Under the pieces are notes generated by a model. The model saw only the letters and a program-made list of their open reading frames with translations, searched no databases and had not been told where the DNA came from. Positions 747 to 6,548 of a stretch of DNA of 6,555 nt are shown here, in pieces (position 1 is the stretch's first letter; each line of letters opens with the position of its first letter). The stretch comes from an uncultured Thermoleophilia bacterium (lineage in GTDB: Bacteria > Actinomycetota > Thermoleophilia > UBA2241): NCBI GenBank assembly GCA_903921965.1, contig CAIXSE010000016.1, forward strand, positions 1 to 6,555. The letters run 5' to 3'. A program made the position numbers and the translations under genes.

Positions 747-1814
747 TCAGTAGTTGGGCGTTACGACGAAGGTGATGACCTGGGTGTATGTGCCTGCGGG
801 CACGCCGAAGTCGACCGCGACCTGATTCGTCAGCTGGATGGTGTCGGGCGCGCCGGAACCGGTGGGACCGGCGGTCGTCAGGAGTGTCTCCACGGCGGTC
901 GGGTAGCCGACCCATTGCCCGTTCTCGAGACCGGCGGCGAAGTCGGGGGCGTCCACGCCTCCAGTGGTCATGGCGCCCTTGAACCCCACGCCATTGTCGG
1001 GGAACTCCGCGACGCCCTCCGACACACCTGACGTCACCCCGGGGATGGTGTACGTCGGCAACGTGCTCTTGAACAGCCCGTCCGGGCTCCCGTAGATGGA
1101 GAGCGAATAGCCGTTGGGCGCGTTCGTCTGCACGGTGAGCGAGTAGTTGACCCGGGAGTGGTTGCTCCCCCCCTCGATGCCGAGCGGGCTCAGTCCGAGG
1201 GAGAAGGACGGGTTGTCGTTGCGGAACACCAGCGTCTGCGCGACGTGGAGAGTCTGTTCTACGCTGGATGAGCCGAAGTCGACCTCCTCTGAGTCCCCGG
1301 TATCGACCTCCCCGTCGGGGGGCGTATCGGAAAACACCGTGATGGATGCCGAGTAGGCGCCCGCCGCCTCGGTGTTCGTGAGCCCGGCGACCGAGATGTA
1401 GACGGGCACGCCTGGGTCAGGTGCGGCCGCCGAGGGCGACACGGCGATGGTCAGCATGTCGTCGGCGAGGGTCACCGGACTGCCTGGGGGGGCAACCACT
1501 CCGAAGCATTGGTCCACCACAGGAGAGCCGCTGGTGCCGGGGGGGACGGTCATGCTCACGTACGCGATGCTCTCGACGGCGCTGCCCAGCGCGAACGAGT
1601 AGGAGTATGTCACGCCGTCCGACGCGGTCTGGGAGTTGCTGACCCACCACTCGACGCCGGTCAGGGCGCCCGGGTCGGCAAGACACACCGATGGCAGAAG
1701 AAGCAGCCCCGTCAGGATCGCGACGAGCACAAGGAGGAGGCCGAGCACAGGCTCGCGCGATACGCCGCAACTTCGCGCTACGGACCCACGAGTTCCATCA
1801 GGATCCGGCCTCAT
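747..1814 (-). CDS. Secreted WxL-like surface protein, second paralogue
   Basis: 355 aa. The frame stays open upstream into the neighbouring gene, but the ATG at 1814 is chosen because GGGGAG lies eight bases before it and because it places a signal peptide correctly: a long polar n-region (1-23), a Leu-rich core (24-43) and probable cleavage after CLA (residue 46). PSVC does not fit a lipobox. The mature protein aligns by eye along its length with the 2895-3869 product. Shared points are the start (GVEWWVSN against GVPDWTVSN), MTVPxGTxGxP, PVYIxxxGLTN, VAQTLxF, TNAxxGYxLS, xNxVAVDF and a Pro-x-Tyr C-terminus. The GYSL (235-238) and ITFVV (347-351) sites sit where WxL domains carry their two WxL motifs. 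An acidic insert (167-179) is unique to this copy. There is no sortase motif or C-terminal helix. It is last in the operon, 56 bases after the DUF916-like gene. A role as a wall-bound or appendage subunit is inferred. Confidence 0.8.
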   Translation of the reverse strand: MRPDPDGTRGSVARSCGVSREPVLGLLLVLVAILTGLLLLPSVCLADPGALTGVEWWVSNSQTASDGVTYSYSFALGSAVESIAYVSMTVPPGTSGSPVVDQCFGVVAPPGSPVTLADDMLTIAVSPSAAAPDPGVPVYISVAGLTNTEAAGAYSASITVFSDTPPDGEVDTGDSEEVDFGSSSVEQTLHVAQTLVFRNDNPSFSLGLSPLGIEGGSNHSRVNYSLTVQTNAPNGYSLSIYGSPDGLFKSTLPTYTIPGVTSGVSEGVAEFPDNGVGFKGAMTTGGVDAPDFAAGLENGQWVGYPTAVETLLTTAGPTGSGAPDTIQLTNQVAVDFGVPAGTYTQVITFVVTPNY

Positions 1815-1822
1815 CGGGACAG

Positions 1823-1828
1823 CTCCCC
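1823..1828 (-). promoter_or_regulatory. Shine-Dalgarno site deciding the 1814 start
   Basis: The minus strand reads GGGGAG, eight bases before the ATG at 1814. It supports this internal start over the much longer open frame that overlaps the upstream gene. Confidence 0.6.
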
Positions 1829-1870
1829 ATGTTCCGCGACACCCGGCCCGGTGGCTCGGCGCACGCGAGT

Positions 1871-2890
1871 CTACTTGTTGGCGGCAGCGCCGTAGATGAC
1901 CTCCTGCCGGCGCCGGCGCTGCTTGCGCGAGCGGCGCACGAGGAGGAACACGATCAGCGCCACGATGCCTGCGGGCACCGCGAGCCAGTACGGCGCGATC
2001 ACGTAGACGGTGCGCGTAAGTACGACCTTCTCGTTGCTCTGCGACGACTTGTTGTACAGAACTACCGTCTGTATGTCGTACTTGCCAATTCCCAGCGTGG
2101 ACTTCCACTGTATCGGAACACCGCGCGAACGGCCCGCCGGCAACTGATGTGCCCGCTCACGGATGCGCGACGGGTCAGGCTTGCTGAAGCCATTCACGAC
2201 CGTCTCAGTCGTGAATCGCAGCGAGTTCTTCCCGGTGTTCGTGACACGGACAGCGCCACTGACAGACGCCGACCATGACACCGTCGGAACGTCGACGTAA
2301 GTCGCCGTCACACTCGTGTTGCGGTCGCCCGGGACCGTCAGCACCACGAGCGCTCCGACGGCGTTGACCGTGCGAATCTGCCCCGAGGTCACCTCTGGCG
2401 TCGCAAGAAAGCCGAGGTAGTAGTCATCCGGCCGCAGGTTCTCAGGGGTTTCAATCCGAATCCTCACTTGCTTGGCCTGACCCGCCTTCAGTTCGAACTC
2501 CTCGGGAACAATCTGGATGCGATGTGCAAACTGGGGGTCAGGTGTGGGAAGAAACTGCGTCTGACCGTCATCCAGAAGCCTGACCCGGCTCGGTGTGATT
2601 GTGACGGTCAGCGGCTCGCTCCCTACGTCTGCGACGCTGAGGGTCACCTTCGCTGTATCGCCTGGCTCCACCGGAATCGGCTCAGCGGGGAACGAGACCG
2701 CCAAGTCGGAGCTGGCGGCGGCGGCGGTAGGTGCGGTCGCAGCGAACATGAGAAGCACCATGAAGAGGACGTGAAGGCCGCCGATCACCGAGGTGATCCG
2801 GCGGCCTTCACGTGAGCTAGTGGGCTGGGGGGTCAAGAGCGACACGTCTTGGGTTTCGCCACCCGTGCAGACCTTCCCTGCCGAATTCAT
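1871..2890 (-). CDS. Membrane-anchored DUF916-like (WxL-interacting-type) protein
   Basis: 339 aa from the ATG at 2890. A hydrophobic signal segment (about 35-59, cleavage after TAAAA) follows an unusually long n-region. Then come two beta-rich domains: about 62-190 (FPAEPIPVEPGDTAKVTLSV opening, RIQIVPEEFELKAGQ, PENLRPDDYYLGFLATPE) and about 195-297. One membrane helix (about 299-318) and a tail with RRSRKQRRRR follow, so the bulk lies outside and the C-terminus inside. This order matches the DUF916 (WxL peptidoglycan/interacting) family of Firmicutes, where a DUF3324 domain and a C-terminal helix follow; assignment is by eye. It lies between two WxL-like genes, as expected for such a partner, and probably tethers or assembles them. 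The start is uncertain: the ATG is four bases after the upstream stop with no SD, so reinitiation is likely. In-frame GTG (2845, 2788), TTG (2836) and ATG (2761) also lack an SD. Confidence 0.78.
   Translation of the reverse strand: MNSAGKVCTGGETQDVSLLTPQPTSSREGRRITSVIGGLHVLFMVLLMFAATAPTAAAASSDLAVSFPAEPIPVEPGDTAKVTLSVADVGSEPLTVTITPSRVRLLDDGQTQFLPTPDPQFAHRIQIVPEEFELKAGQAKQVRIRIETPENLRPDDYYLGFLATPEVTSGQIRTVNAVGALVVLTVPGDRNTSVTATYVDVPTVSWSASVSGAVRVTNTGKNSLRFTTETVVNGFSKPDPSRIRERAHQLPAGRSRGVPIQWKSTLGIGKYDIQTVVLYNKSSQSNEKVVLTRTVYVIAPYWLAVPAGIVALIVFLLVRRSRKQRRRRQEVIYGAAANK
2769..2813 (-). other. 21-bp hairpin at the junction of the first two surface genes
   Basis: The arms at 2769-2789 and 2792-2813 pair over 21 base pairs with one bulged base (2798 or 2799) and a two-base centre, so the real loop is probably four. 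In minus-strand RNA it is followed by UCCUCUUC, a poor U-tract. It lies 82 bases after the stop of the 2895-3869 gene and within codons for the end of the n-region and start of the hydrophobic core of the DUF916-like signal peptide. It could be a leaky terminator, a 3' stabiliser of the first gene's mRNA, or a brake on translation of the second. Confidence 0.75.
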
Positions 2891-2894
2891 TGAC

Positions 2895-3869
2895 TCAGTT
2901 GTAGTCGGGAGCGACGATGTAGGTAATCGTGTCGCTGTAGTTGCCGGCGGCCTGGGAGAAGTCGACGGCGACCTTGTTGGTGATGGTCAGGAGATCGCCA
3001 TCGTCCCCAGTGGGACCAGTATTGTGGAAGATTGCGGCCCCCTCGGCGGCGGTCTTGTAGCCGTAGTAGTTGGCTGGCGTCCCGAGTTCAACGTGGCCAG
3101 TCCCGCTGGTGTCGGTCACGAGGAAGCCGAAGCCCACATCCGGGAATGAACCGGGAGCGACGCCGGTCGTGTCATTGACGGCCGCAATCTGCGTCAGATC
3201 GGCATCCTTGAGACCAGCATCCTTCACAGACAGAGTGTACCCACTCTCTGCGTTCGTCTTGACCGAGAGCGAGACGACCTTGGTCTGATTGAGCGTGTTG
3301 GTCGGATCGACGTGGAGGTTGAAAGCAGCGGTGCTGTTGGTGAAGAGGAGCGTCTGCGCGACCGCGACAGTCACGCCCGTGGTGTTCCCACCAAAGGCGA
3401 CCGCGGCGGTCGTAGCCGTATCAATCGTGGCAACAGGGCCAGCGGATTGGGTGGTAATTATTGCGGTATCGCTGCCCGCACTGCTCCTGTTGGTCAGGCC
3501 CGTGATCTGGATGTACACGGGCGTACCCGCGTCCACTGAAACCCGATCTTCAACGGCGATCGTGTAGGTGAGCACGTTTGTGGCAAGCGCAACAGAGCCG
3601 GTGCCGTCGATTCCGTACACCGTGCCCACCGCCGGGGTGCCAGCCGTGCCATCAGGGACGGTCATGGTGACCGTGGCGATGATACCCCCTGTCGTCGTTG
3701 TGAACATGTAGGTGTAGGTAACCGAGGTGGCTGACGTCGCTGTGTTGCTAACGGTCCAATCGGGCACACCCAAGGCTCCTGCGAACGCCGCACCCGCAAA
3801 GACCCCGACGGCAAGCACCGCCATGACCATCACGATCGTGAAGCGTGTGATGTGTTTCCGAGCCTTCAT
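2895..3869 (-). CDS. Secreted WxL-like surface protein, first gene of the operon
   Basis: 324 aa. The ATG at 3869 is chosen over an in-frame GTG at 3896 because GGGAGG lies seven bases upstream of it. The signal peptide is classical: MKARKHITRF, a hydrophobic core (11-29) and cleavage after AFA (residue 30). The mature protein is Thr/Val/Ala-rich with no cysteine. An N-terminal beta domain (about 36-140) holds MTVPDGTAG and PVYIQITGLTN; a C-terminal region (about 166-324) runs from VAQTLLF through KTNAESGYTLSV and TNKVAVDF to DTITYIVAPDYN. GYTL (210-213) and ITYIV (315-319) occupy the places of the two WxL motifs of Firmicutes WxL domains, with Tyr for Trp. There is no LPXTG or C-terminal helix, so it is either held non-covalently or polymerised. 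It is paralogous to the 747-1814 product. Its strong SD and first position suggest it is the major subunit. Its GC is lower than that of the flanking kinase and third surface gene. Confidence 0.82.
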   Translation of the reverse strand: MKARKHITRFTIVMVMAVLAVGVFAGAAFAGALGVPDWTVSNTATSATSVTYTYMFTTTTGGIIATVTMTVPDGTAGTPAVGTVYGIDGTGSVALATNVLTYTIAVEDRVSVDAGTPVYIQITGLTNRSSAGSDTAIITTQSAGPVATIDTATTAAVAFGGNTTGVTVAVAQTLLFTNSTAAFNLHVDPTNTLNQTKVVSLSVKTNAESGYTLSVKDAGLKDADLTQIAAVNDTTGVAPGSFPDVGFGFLVTDTSGTGHVELGTPANYYGYKTAAEGAAIFHNTGPTGDDGDLLTITNKVAVDFSQAAGNYSDTITYIVAPDYN

Positions 3870-4401: not shown

Positions 4402-4448
4402 GCGCAGCGTCAGGCGCACACCGGCGCGCAAGGCGCAGCGTCAGGCGC
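4402..4448. repeat. 16-base direct repeat spanning the regulator stop codon
   Basis: GCGCAGCGTCAGGCGC occurs at 4402-4417 and again at 4433-4448, 31 bases apart. The second copy contains the response-regulator stop codon (4441-4443). Flanking bases also partly match, so this looks like a decayed tandem duplication of about 31 bases at the gene's 3' end. Slippage in this GC-rich sequence would explain it. Confidence 0.7.
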
Positions 4449-5103
4449 GCGCGTCGATGAGGTGCAGCTCCATGCCCTTCACGATCGCCTCCGCGCGGCT
4501 GCGCACGCCGAGCTTGCGGTAGATCGCGGAGATGTGGTTCTGCACCGTCTTCTTGCTCAGGAAGAGCTCGGAGGCGATCTGCGCCGGCGAGCGCGGCGTC
4601 GCGAGCAGGCGCAGGATCTCGAGCTCGCGGTCGGTGAGCTCCAGGCGGCGCTGCTCGTAGGCGCCCGGCGCGTAGTCGAGCTCGCGGATGCCCTCGCCGA
4701 GGTTGGCGGCGACGCCGGTGCTGAGCACCGTGCCGCCCTTGACGACGAGGTCGATGGCGCCGAAGAGCTGCTCGGGCTCGGCGTCTTTGGCCACGTAGCC
4801 ACGGGCGCCGGCCGAGATCGCGCTGAAGAGCGCGTCCCTGTCTTCGCGCGCGCTCAGGATGATGACTTTGACGTCGTCGCCCCGCTCGCTCAGGTGGCGG
4901 GCGACGTCCAGGCCGCTCATGCCGGGCATGGAGATGTCCAGGAGCAGGATGCACCCCTGGTTCTCCCCCACGGTGGCGATGGCCTCGTCGCCGCTGCACG
5001 CCTCGGCCACCACGACGTAGCCCTCGGCCTCCAGGAGCTGCCTGAGCCCCTGCCGGAACAGGCCGTGGTCGTCCGCGATGATGACGCGTCCCTTGTCTGT
5101 CAT
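4441..5103 (-). CDS. NarL/LuxR-family response regulator
   Basis: 220 aa. The receiver domain (about 5-122) has the acidic pair D11-D12, phosphoacceptor D56 in LLLDISMPGMSG, S84 in ILSARED and K106 in GYVAKDA, so it should be phosphorylatable. A linker (123-153) leads to a LuxR-type helix-turn-helix (about 155-212: LTDRELEILRLLA, IASELFLSKKTVQNHISAIY, KLGVRSRAEAI), complete and of normal length. The ATG at 5103 overlaps the kinase stop by four bases (ATGA), so the two are translationally coupled and should work as a pair: phosphotransfer from the kinase, then dimerisation and DNA binding. Targets are unknown. The surface operon begins about 570 bases downstream on the same strand and is the obvious candidate by position only. 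The NarL type usually pairs with HisKA_3 kinases, whereas this kinase has a classical H-box. Confidence 0.95.
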   Translation of the reverse strand: MTDKGRVIIADDHGLFRQGLRQLLEAEGYVVVAEACSGDEAIATVGENQGCILLLDISMPGMSGLDVARHLSERGDDVKVIILSAREDRDALFSAISAGARGYVAKDAEPEQLFGAIDLVVKGGTVLSTGVAANLGEGIRELDYAPGAYEQRRLELTDRELEILRLLATPRSPAQIASELFLSKKTVQNHISAIYRKLGVRSRAEAIVKGMELHLIDARA

Positions 5104-6548
5104 TGAGTCACCACCAGGAGTGAGACGAGGTCCAGGAACGTCTCGACCTCGAAGGGTTTGGGCAGGTACCACGCTTGCCGCCCATGCACTTCCGCGAGCG
5201 CACCGCCCGCGCCTTGGTACCCACTGGCCAGCAGGACCGGAACGCCTGCCGGCAGTTGCTTGGCGATGTCGACGCCGGACTGCCCCGGCAGCTGGAAGTC
5301 GAGGACCGCGCAGCGCCAGGCGGTGTGGCGGCGCCACACGTCGCGGCCCGCGCCGACGGCGGTGACCACGGCGCCGCACGACTCCAGCGCCTCGACCTCC
5401 GCGGCGCGGATGGCGGGGTCGTCCTCGACCACGAGGATCGGGACGCCCGCCAGACGGCTGCGGTCAGGCAGCGGCAGCGTGACGACGAACTCCGCGCCCC
5501 CGCCGCGGCGGTCCTGGGCGCGGATGTCGCCGCCCGCGGACTCCACCAGGCTCTTGACCAGCCAGAGGCCGAGGCCCGTCCCGCTCGCCTTCGTGCTGAA
5601 GAAGGCGGCGAACACGTCGCCCGACGGCAGCCCGGGGCCGCGGTCGGCGATGCGCACGGCGACCGAGCCGTCGCGGACCTTGACGCCGACGTCCACGGGA
5701 CCGAGGCCGCCGGTCACCTCCAGGGCGTTCGTGACGAGGTTGGTGATGACGGAACGGCAGTCGGCTTCCCTGAGGGCGACGCGCGGCTCACCGGGTCCCA
5801 CGCGCAGGTTGATGGCTGCGCCGTCGAACCTGGCGCGTTCTTTCCTGACCGCGTCGCGCACGACCGGCGCGAGCGGGGTGAGCGCCGTGCCCTCGGCGAG
5901 GGCGGCGTCGGGGTTGATGGAGTGCATGATCGATTTGAGGCGGTCCAGGCACTCGCGCGTCTGGGCCTTGATCACGCCGAGCTGCTCCCGGGCGACGTCG
6001 TCGCCGGTCTGGCGGCGCAGCATGAGGTTGGCGTAGAGCTCGACGGTGGCCAGCGGCGACTTGAGCTCGTGCGTCATGGCGCTGGCGATTCGTCCGACCT
6101 CGGCGAAGCGCTGCGCCTCGGCGCGGCGGCGCTCCTCGGCCAGCGCGTCCGTGATGTCGGCGAAGAACACGGCGGCGGCCCCGCCGTCGCCGAGGATGCT
6201 GACCGTGTAGCCGAGCGTCTGCTCGCCGCCGTCGACGGTCACGACGACCTGGCGGCGCACCGCTTCGGCGCCGCTGCGGCGGGCCTCACCGAGGACGTCC
6301 ACGAGCGCGGCGAGAGCCGGCGGATCGAGGAGTTCGTCCAGCCGCCGGCCCGACACGTCGCCGGCGGGCACGCCGAGCACGCGCGCGGCCGCCGGGTTGT
6401 ACACGGCGACGCGACCGTCGTCGTCCACGGCCATGGCCGCAGTCTGCACGTGCTGGAGCACGGTGCTCGCCAGCGCCTCGATGCCGTTCCTCCTCGCCCT
6501 GGATGTACGCGGCCCCGGACAGACGCGTCCCACTGGCCTCGGGAGCAT
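5100..6548 (-). CDS. Hybrid PAS sensor histidine kinase with C-terminal receiver
   Basis: 482 aa from the ATG at 6548, the outermost start visible. The PAS domain spans about 25-135 (VQTAAMAVDDDGRVAVYNPAA, FFADITD), followed by a short coiled linker. HisKA is about 145-211, with H160 in the H-box MTHELKSPL. The ATPase domain is about 225-360, with N274 in NLVTNALE, D302 in DRGPGLP and the GTGLGLWLV lid motif. The receiver is about 369-478, with D375-D376, phosphoacceptor D417 (LDFQLPGQSG), S442 and K464 in YLPKPF. All catalytic residues are present. No membrane helix is seen, so sensing appears cytoplasmic, or the sensor part lies upstream. Its own receiver suggests autoregulation or a phosphorelay. 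The start is doubtful: the first ~22 residues are Arg/Pro-rich, there is no visible SD, the frame is open to the edge, and another frame looks more protein-like there. Confidence 0.88.
   Translation of the reverse strand: MLPRPVGRVCPGPRTSRARRNGIEALASTVLQHVQTAAMAVDDDGRVAVYNPAAARVLGVPAGDVSGRRLDELLDPPALAALVDVLGEARRSGAEAVRRQVVVTVDGGEQTLGYTVSILGDGGAAAVFFADITDALAEERRRAEAQRFAEVGRIASAMTHELKSPLATVELYANLMLRRQTGDDVAREQLGVIKAQTRECLDRLKSIMHSINPDAALAEGTALTPLAPVVRDAVRKERARFDGAAINLRVGPGEPRVALREADCRSVITNLVTNALEVTGGLGPVDVGVKVRDGSVAVRIADRGPGLPSGDVFAAFFSTKASGTGLGLWLVKSLVESAGGDIRAQDRRGGGAEFVVTLPLPDRSRLAGVPILVVEDDPAIRAAEVEALESCGAVVTAVGAGRDVWRRHTAWRCAVLDFQLPGQSGVDIAKQLPAGVPVLLASGYQGAGGALAEVHGRQAWYLPKPFEVETFLDLVSLLVVTQ

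What the first reader, a model, noticed from the sequence alone, without database searches (positions are those of the whole stretch)
747..3869. WxL-like surface operon with Tyr-x-Leu in place of Trp-x-Leu, in an apparent actinobacterium
Two secreted paralogues flank a DUF916-like membrane protein, the gene partnership that defines WxL systems in Firmicutes. The paralogues keep the positions of the two WxL motifs but carry GYTL/GYSL and ITYIV/ITFVV. If correct, this is a divergent branch of a wall-attachment system outside its classical host range, with altered key residues that may recognise a different wall polymer or partner. The motif equivalence is my reading by eye; the family assignment of the middle gene makes it more likely.
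Basis: partly seen in the sequence, partly recalled or inferred. Interest (0 to 1): 0.72.

Follow-up and report, generated by a model that had tools for sequence, protein, structure and literature searches.

The report
Pilin-like operon with WxLIP-type membrane partner
This bacterial operon pairs two secreted proteins that resemble pilus subunits of ultrasmall bacteria with a membrane protein related to the partner of WxL wall proteins, linking two surface systems that carry different names.

The parts
2895..3869 (-). P0001, 324 aa: signal peptide (about 1-30), Ig-like N-terminal domain (about 31-162), Pam-pilin-C-like C-terminal domain (about 163-324)
   Evidence: (AlphaFold2 pLDDT 84)
1871..2890 (-). 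P0002, 339 aa: WxLIP homologue; signal peptide, two Ig-like domains (about 60-190 and 190-300), C-terminal helix (301-338) with transmembrane stretch and basic tail
   Evidence: (pLDDT 87)
747..1814 (-). P0003, 355 aa: second two-domain paralogue (Ig-like N-terminal domain plus Pam-pilin-C-like C-terminal domain, GYSL/ITFVV)
   Evidence: window|750-2156: ntd 5.8e-47, ctd 3.3e-63, pam 2.3e-10
3231..3254 (-). codons for P0001 residues 206-213, NAESGYTL (conserved Asn-Ala-x-x-Gly-Tyr signature, first motif)
   Evidence: Tyr 36 of 36 rows
2898..2936 (-). codons for P0001 residues 312-324, SDTITYIVAPDYN (second motif)
   Evidence: Tyr 34 and Phe 2 of 36 rows
2522..2578 (-). codons for P0002 residues 105-123, LLDDGQTQFLPTPDPQFAH: conserved loop in the stretch that aligns with EfmWxLIP1; that it corresponds to the client-binding hairpin is my reading
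   Evidence: profile alignment; paper describes the hairpin

Best explanation
The operon makes a WxLIP-anchored surface fibre or adhesin of the Pam-pilin kind. P0001 and P0003 are secreted; each carries an Ig-like stalk or ligand domain and a C-terminal Pam-pilin-type beta-sandwich. P0002 is a membrane protein of the WxLIP superfamily whose two Ig-like domains face outward. Its first domain holds the C-terminal domains of P0001 and P0003 at the cell surface, probably by lending them a beta-strand, as modelled for Firmicutes WxLIP and WxL. Shown by computation: gene order, domain families, structural match of P0002 to WxLIP, repeated neighbourhood with Pam-type domains in actinobacteria and CPR, and a separate WxLIP clade for this partner type. 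Inferred: binding between the products, strand donation, assembly into a fibre, and any ligand.
Confidence: 0.62

Rival explanations
1. A true but divergent WxL system: the C-terminal domains are WxL domains with Tyr in place of Trp that bind peptidoglycan.
For: WxLIP partner; weak resemblance to WxL above 120 block-shuffles (23.2 against a maximum of 20.0); both motif positions fall in register; relatives P0029-P0036 carry the same N-terminal module ahead of a WxL-like C-terminal domain (5 of 32 A1 members match PF13731 at E<=0.01).
Against: PF13731 does not list P0001 or P0003 at E<=1; probability at most 6.6 against WxL versus 98.8 against Pam; the N-terminal domain, as a control, scores 19.6 against WxL, not far below 23.2; their WxLIPs form a clade apart from the WxL-partnered WxLIPs of actinobacteria.
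Confidence: 0.15
2. P0001 and P0003 polymerise into a TasA-like or chaperone-usher-like fibre by donor-strand exchange, with P0002 as assembly chaperone and base rather than as a wall anchor.
Against: No donor strand was identified; the AbpX hits are not significant; P0002 keeps a transmembrane helix, unlike periplasmic chaperones.
Confidence: 0.3
3. Ordinary secreted Ig-like adhesins that happen to lie beside a generic Ig-like membrane protein; no special partnership.
For: Tandem beta-sandwich proteins are common and give broad structural matches. Two non-CPR loci (L001, L014) and 4 of 19 CPR genomes have no WxLIP match near by.
Against: The pairing recurs in 10 of 15 non-CPR loci and, within 3 kb, in 15 of 19 CPR genomes, and partner type follows WxLIP clade in a 33-protein tree.
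Confidence: 0.08

Closest known systems
WxL clusters (small WxL, large WxL, WxLIP) of Firmicutes
   Same: One WxLIP-superfamily membrane protein beside two secreted surface proteins; client domain at the C-terminus; in Actinoplanes also a small/WxLIP/large layout
   Different: Client domain is Pam-pilin-type, not PF13731; separate WxLIP clade; P0001 and P0003 both carry an extra N-terminal domain
CPR Pam pilus proteins (NCBIfam NF058581 pilin C domain, NF058579 PamT, NF058578 PamR)
   Same: Related C-terminal domain; a WxLIP homologue next door in CPR too and beside PamR in the 4 strong of 6 loci fetched
   Different: Below the NCBI cut-off; no PamR or PamT in the window; N-terminal domain of the actinobacterial type; host is probably not CPR
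WxLIP of Enterococcus faecium, EfmWxLIP1 (PDB 9i1y, 9i25)
   Same: Two Ig-like domains; top structural and profile match for P0002
   Different: 11-12% identity; no NQIDKxxxYFDLK segment; different client
Donor-strand fibres and chaperone-usher pili (TasA, CfaA/CfaE)
   Same: Fold-level resemblance of both partners to chaperone-usher proteins
   Different: No significant sequence relationship found in the PDB searches; no usher in the window; strand exchange not shown here

Membership tests
WxLIP (DUF916-DUF3324) | Secreted protein with two tandem Ig-like domains and a C-terminal transmembrane helix | tested here: met
WxLIP (DUF916-DUF3324) | Sequence homology to WxLIP | tested here: met
   Profile of 24 relatives against 4 Firmicutes WxLIPs probability 97.1, E 5.9e-11 for one pair; PF06030 matches 9 of 24 members at E<=0.01, best 9.2e-9; P0002 alone E 0.065, below cut-off
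WxLIP (DUF916-DUF3324) | Conserved N-terminal NQIDKxxxYFDLK segment (PMC10599100, Results read) | tested here: not met
   Absent from P0002; so it is filed as a WxLIP homologue of a separate clade, not a canonical WxLIP
WxL domain (PF13731) | Match to the WxL profile | tested here: not met
   Not listed at E<=1 for P0001 or P0003
WxL domain (PF13731) | Two Trp-x-Leu motifs | tested here: not met
   GYTL/ITYIV and GYSL/ITFVV
WxL domain (PF13731) | Same fold as WxL | tested here: inconclusive
   Entry 9i25 is titled as WxLIP bound to long WxL, but no WxL chain is among the 50 rows shown for P0001; absence from the list excludes nothing
WxL domain (PF13731) | Binds peptidoglycan | not testable with these tools
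   Needs a binding assay
CPR Pam pilin C domain (NF058581) | Homology to the domain | tested here: met
   P0001 E 2.9e-7; CTD against 14 CPR domains probability 98.8, E 5.2e-17, 125 columns (CPR rows partly found by similarity to this family)
CPR Pam pilin C domain (NF058581) | Score over NCBI's curated cut-off of 55 bits | tested here: not met
   30.7 bits for P0001, 11.9 for P0003; filed as Pam-pilin-C-like, not as a Pam pilin
CPR Pam pilus system | PamR and PamT in the cluster | tested here: not met
   Neither is listed for the window's genes; the contig beyond the window was not seen
CPR Pam pilus system | Forms a pilus | not testable with these tools
   Needs microscopy

The most novel reading that the evidence does not exclude
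WxL domains, Pam pilin domains and the C-terminal domains seen here are branches of one old superfamily of strand-accepting surface domains. All are served by WxLIP-type membrane proteins that lend the missing strand, so WxL wall proteins of Firmicutes and Pam pili of CPR are two forms of one sortase-independent surface-assembly machine. The window's operon would be its actinobacterial form, in a phylum that hosts CPR epibionts.
Probability: 0.3. Interest if true: 0.8.

Novelty: new variant of a known kind. Interest (0 to 1): 0.55.

Why it matters
It suggests that WxLIP is not specific to WxL: the same membrane-protein superfamily partners a different, pilin-like client in actinobacteria and in CPR. 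That gives the poorly known CPR Pam system a candidate membrane base, puts a form of it into cultured actinobacteria such as Actinoplanes and Frankia where it can be tested, and makes one testable claim (WxLIP binds the Pam-type C-terminal domain) that would join two separately named systems.

Tried and rejected
Rejected: Tyr-x-Leu as an altered key residue of WxL. It is the norm of a different domain family, and Tyr also occurs at the first position in 3 of 5 Firmicutes WxL domains. Rejected: Lys-Asn isopeptide bonds in the N-terminal domain of P0001, which has no lysine.

Led nowhere: viral-contig scan (58 stretches, no relative); PDB sequence searches with P0001, P0002 alone, a CPR PamT, A2, WxL P0039, WxL alignment A6 and P0031, none with a hit better than E 0.1; Rfam on the window (0 matches); promoter scan (0 found); family queries NF058580 and NF058582, which turned out to be unrelated families; PamR in the genomes of L017 and L021 (0 of 2). 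No WxL chain appeared among the rows shown for the P0001 model; this excludes nothing. What TLP-1a is was not found.

Papers: searches for Pam pilus, PamT, Southlakia and Patescibacteria pili, for WxL with DUF916, Actinobacteria or CPR terms, for WxLIP since 2024 and for donor-strand fibres, PDB codes or AbpX. In the listings shown I saw no paper on a WxLIP beside Pam pilins; only listings were seen, bar the three papers opened (PMC10599100, PMC9772566, PMC11952670), and most subscription journals and bioRxiv are not held. The recalled links (positive-inside rule, CPR epibionts on actinobacteria as a general theme) come from established knowledge.

Caveats: hhalign E-values are for one pair each. 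The shuffle control breaks long beta patterns. Rows dropped: alignment A2 took P0001, P0003 and 20 of the 34 hits (left out: the identical P0007, the frame-disturbed P0024, and P0029-P0040 with other C-termini or leader-only matches); the Firmicutes WxL set left out the B. pumilus large protein and L. curvatus. The 15 non-CPR loci include two pairs from one genome by record title (L001/L002, L003/L006), and three are titled Burkholderiales (L004), bacterium (L013) and Chloroflexota (L014). In the tree the label for P0004-P0006 is assumed (their neighbours were not seen), L024 rests on PamR alone, L030 on a short sub-cut-off PF13731 match, several branches are long, and five rows come from plasmid records. 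In one search I copied hit coordinates by hand (one WxLIP row of G051, on a contig without a Pam match, was missed; no effect); distances are between profile matches. Five of the 116 CPR genomes (G001, G011, G033, G051, G069) had given rows to the WxLIP profile. The 3 genomes of 396 had already supplied seed loci.
Full report
Observation. The window holds three minus-strand genes at the stated place: P0001 (3869-2895, 324 aa), P0002 (2890-1871, 339 aa) and P0003 (1814-747, 355 aa). P0001 and P0002 are four bases apart, P0002 and P0003 56 bases, and purine-rich ribosome-binding sites precede P0001 and P0003. The quoted motifs are present. Upstream lie a histidine kinase with a receiver domain and a LuxR-type response regulator, and downstream a guaB3-type IMPDH-related gene cut by the window edge. 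The three genes have lower GC3 (0.76-0.85) than the flanking genes (0.92-0.97), which fits horizontal acquisition but does not prove it.

The flanking proteins. Both have an Ig-like N-terminal domain and a C-terminal domain. PF13731 lists neither at E<=1. NCBIfam NF058581, 'Pam pilus system pilin subunit' of CPR bacteria, finds P0001 residues 190-323 at E 2.9e-7 (30.7 bits, cut-off 55) and P0003 at E 0.18; of 32 members of alignment A1 it finds 5 at E<=0.01. Profile comparison of the C-terminal domain with CPR Pam domains from my loci gives probability 98.5, E 2.2e-15, 121 columns (8 CPR rows), and 98.8, E 5.2e-17, 125 columns (36 and 14 rows). Those CPR loci were found by similarity to this same family, so this comparison is not independent; NF058581 is, and one of the CPR rows (L017) scores 133.9 bits against it. 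Against WxL the domain gives probability 0.5 and 1.4, 1.7 (54 WxL rows) and, pooled with Pam, 6.6. Within the WxL family the same method gives 99.4-99.6. The pooled score of 23.2 exceeds all 120 block-shuffled controls (maximum 20.0, mean 13.5) and the reversed control (11.9), but the N-terminal domain, as a control, scores 19.6. The resemblance is in register at both motifs. I read this as possible remote kinship, not membership.

Motifs. The first Tyr is invariant in 36 of 36 C-terminal domains, and the second position is Tyr 34, Phe 2. In 14 CPR domains the first is Tyr 11, Phe 3, and the second Tyr 11, Ile 2, Val 1. In 49 non-Firmicutes WxL domains the first is Trp 48, Tyr 1, and the second is never Trp. 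In 5 Firmicutes WxL domains the first is Tyr 3, Trp 2, and the second Trp 4, Ala 1. So Tyr is neither an alteration here nor foreign to WxL.

Domain swaps. Relatives P0029-P0036 carry the N-terminal module of P0001 (by eye in two copies where full-length) ahead of a WxL-like C-terminal domain; 5 of the 32 members of A1 match PF13731 at E<=0.01. Small WxL proteins P0038-P0043, P0045 and P0049 share 26-29 of the first 30 residues of P0001, so nearly the same leader serves both client types in related organisms.

Neighbourhoods. A genome scan gave 21 loci. Of the 15 non-CPR loci (12 titled as actinobacterial), 10 have a WxLIP homologue (9 downstream on the same strand, L007 divergently); of the other 5, three end in or just after the gene (L011-L013) and two lack it (L001, L014). 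L001 comes from the same genome as L002, which has the pair. All 6 CPR loci have it. Of 6 loci fetched with PamR, the 4 strong ones have a WxLIP homologue beside PamR and the 2 weak ones do not. In 116 CPR genomes, 19 have the Pam domain at E<=1e-6 (7 over cut-off) and 58 a WxLIP homologue. In 14 of the 19 a same-strand WxLIP match lies within 300 bp, downstream, in 15 within 3 kb, and in 4 not. Without the 5 genomes that gave rows to the WxLIP profile it is 10 of 14 within 300 bp. In 396 Actinomycetota genomes the P0001 family is found in 3, all of which had already supplied seed loci, and PF13731 in 9 at E<=1e-4, 8 over cut-off: both are rare and patchy there.

Two systems in one genome. Of 18 genomes behind my loci, 3 have PF13731 matches at E<=0.001, 1 of them over cut-off. 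The genome of L009 (Actinoplanes utahensis; L028, over cut-off) and that of L007 (a Microbacteriaceae MAG; L029 and L033, below cut-off but clear with my WxL profile) hold WxL-type proteins with their own WxLIP next door; the third, that of L010, has a short match beside a WxLIP homologue (L030). In a tree of 33 WxLIPs, partner type equals clade: Pam-type actinobacterial 100/100, CPR 100/98, WxL-type actinobacterial 92/72, Firmicutes 100/99 (label caveats under Tried and rejected). In Actinoplanes the Pam-type cluster is small protein, WxLIP, then a 1090-aa open frame with an NHL propeller ahead of the same two C-terminal domains, the layout of WxL clusters (PMC9772566, parts 1 and 2 of 4 read).

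Mechanism. In Firmicutes a WxLIP hairpin is modelled to complete the WxL sandwich (PMC10599100). P0002 keeps a conserved loop in the aligned stretch, the partner domains look pilin-like, and P0002 looks chaperone-like after WxLIP. The simplest account is that P0002 holds P0001 and P0003 at the surface by strand complementation, either as single adhesins or as the base of a fibre. None of this is shown by experiment here.

Verdict. The label WxL does not fit the secreted proteins; WxLIP-superfamily fits the partner. The finding is a new variant of a known kind that connects WxL clusters with CPR Pam proteins.

Noticed in passing
P0038-P0043, P0045, P0049 and P0001 residues 1-30: Small WxL proteins from related organisms carry almost the same signal peptide as P0001 (26-29 of 30 residues) with a different mature part, as if leaders and client domains had been swapped.
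   Followed up: partly
window 747-3869 against 1-597 and 4441-6548: GC3 of the operon is 0.76-0.85 against 0.92-0.97 in the flanking genes, which suggests acquisition from elsewhere.
   Followed up: partly
L035, L036, L034 (Pediococcus, Bacillus pumilus, Pontibacillus plasmids): Annotated WxL proteins of Firmicutes with Tyr instead of Trp in the first motif.
   Followed up: partly
non-Firmicutes WxL rows: The second Trp of WxL is absent in 49 of 49 non-Firmicutes rows (Val, Thr, Ile, Leu or Phe instead).
   Followed up: no
L015 11627-16939, minus strand: A 1771-aa open frame in Frankia canadensis with several WxLIP-like Ig repeats, on the strand opposite to the Pam-type cluster.
   Followed up: no
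CPR genomes: WxLIP homologues occur in 58 of 116 CPR genomes, more than the Pam domain at E<=1e-6 (19 of 116): more divergent Pam domains or other clients.
   Followed up: no
PDB 9sj2_C and 9rhp_A: The WxLIP-family profile touches archaeal bundling protein AbpX at E 0.07 and 0.21, not significant; a passage of PMC11952670 calls ABPx, presumably the same, a donor-strand-exchanged fibre.
   Followed up: no
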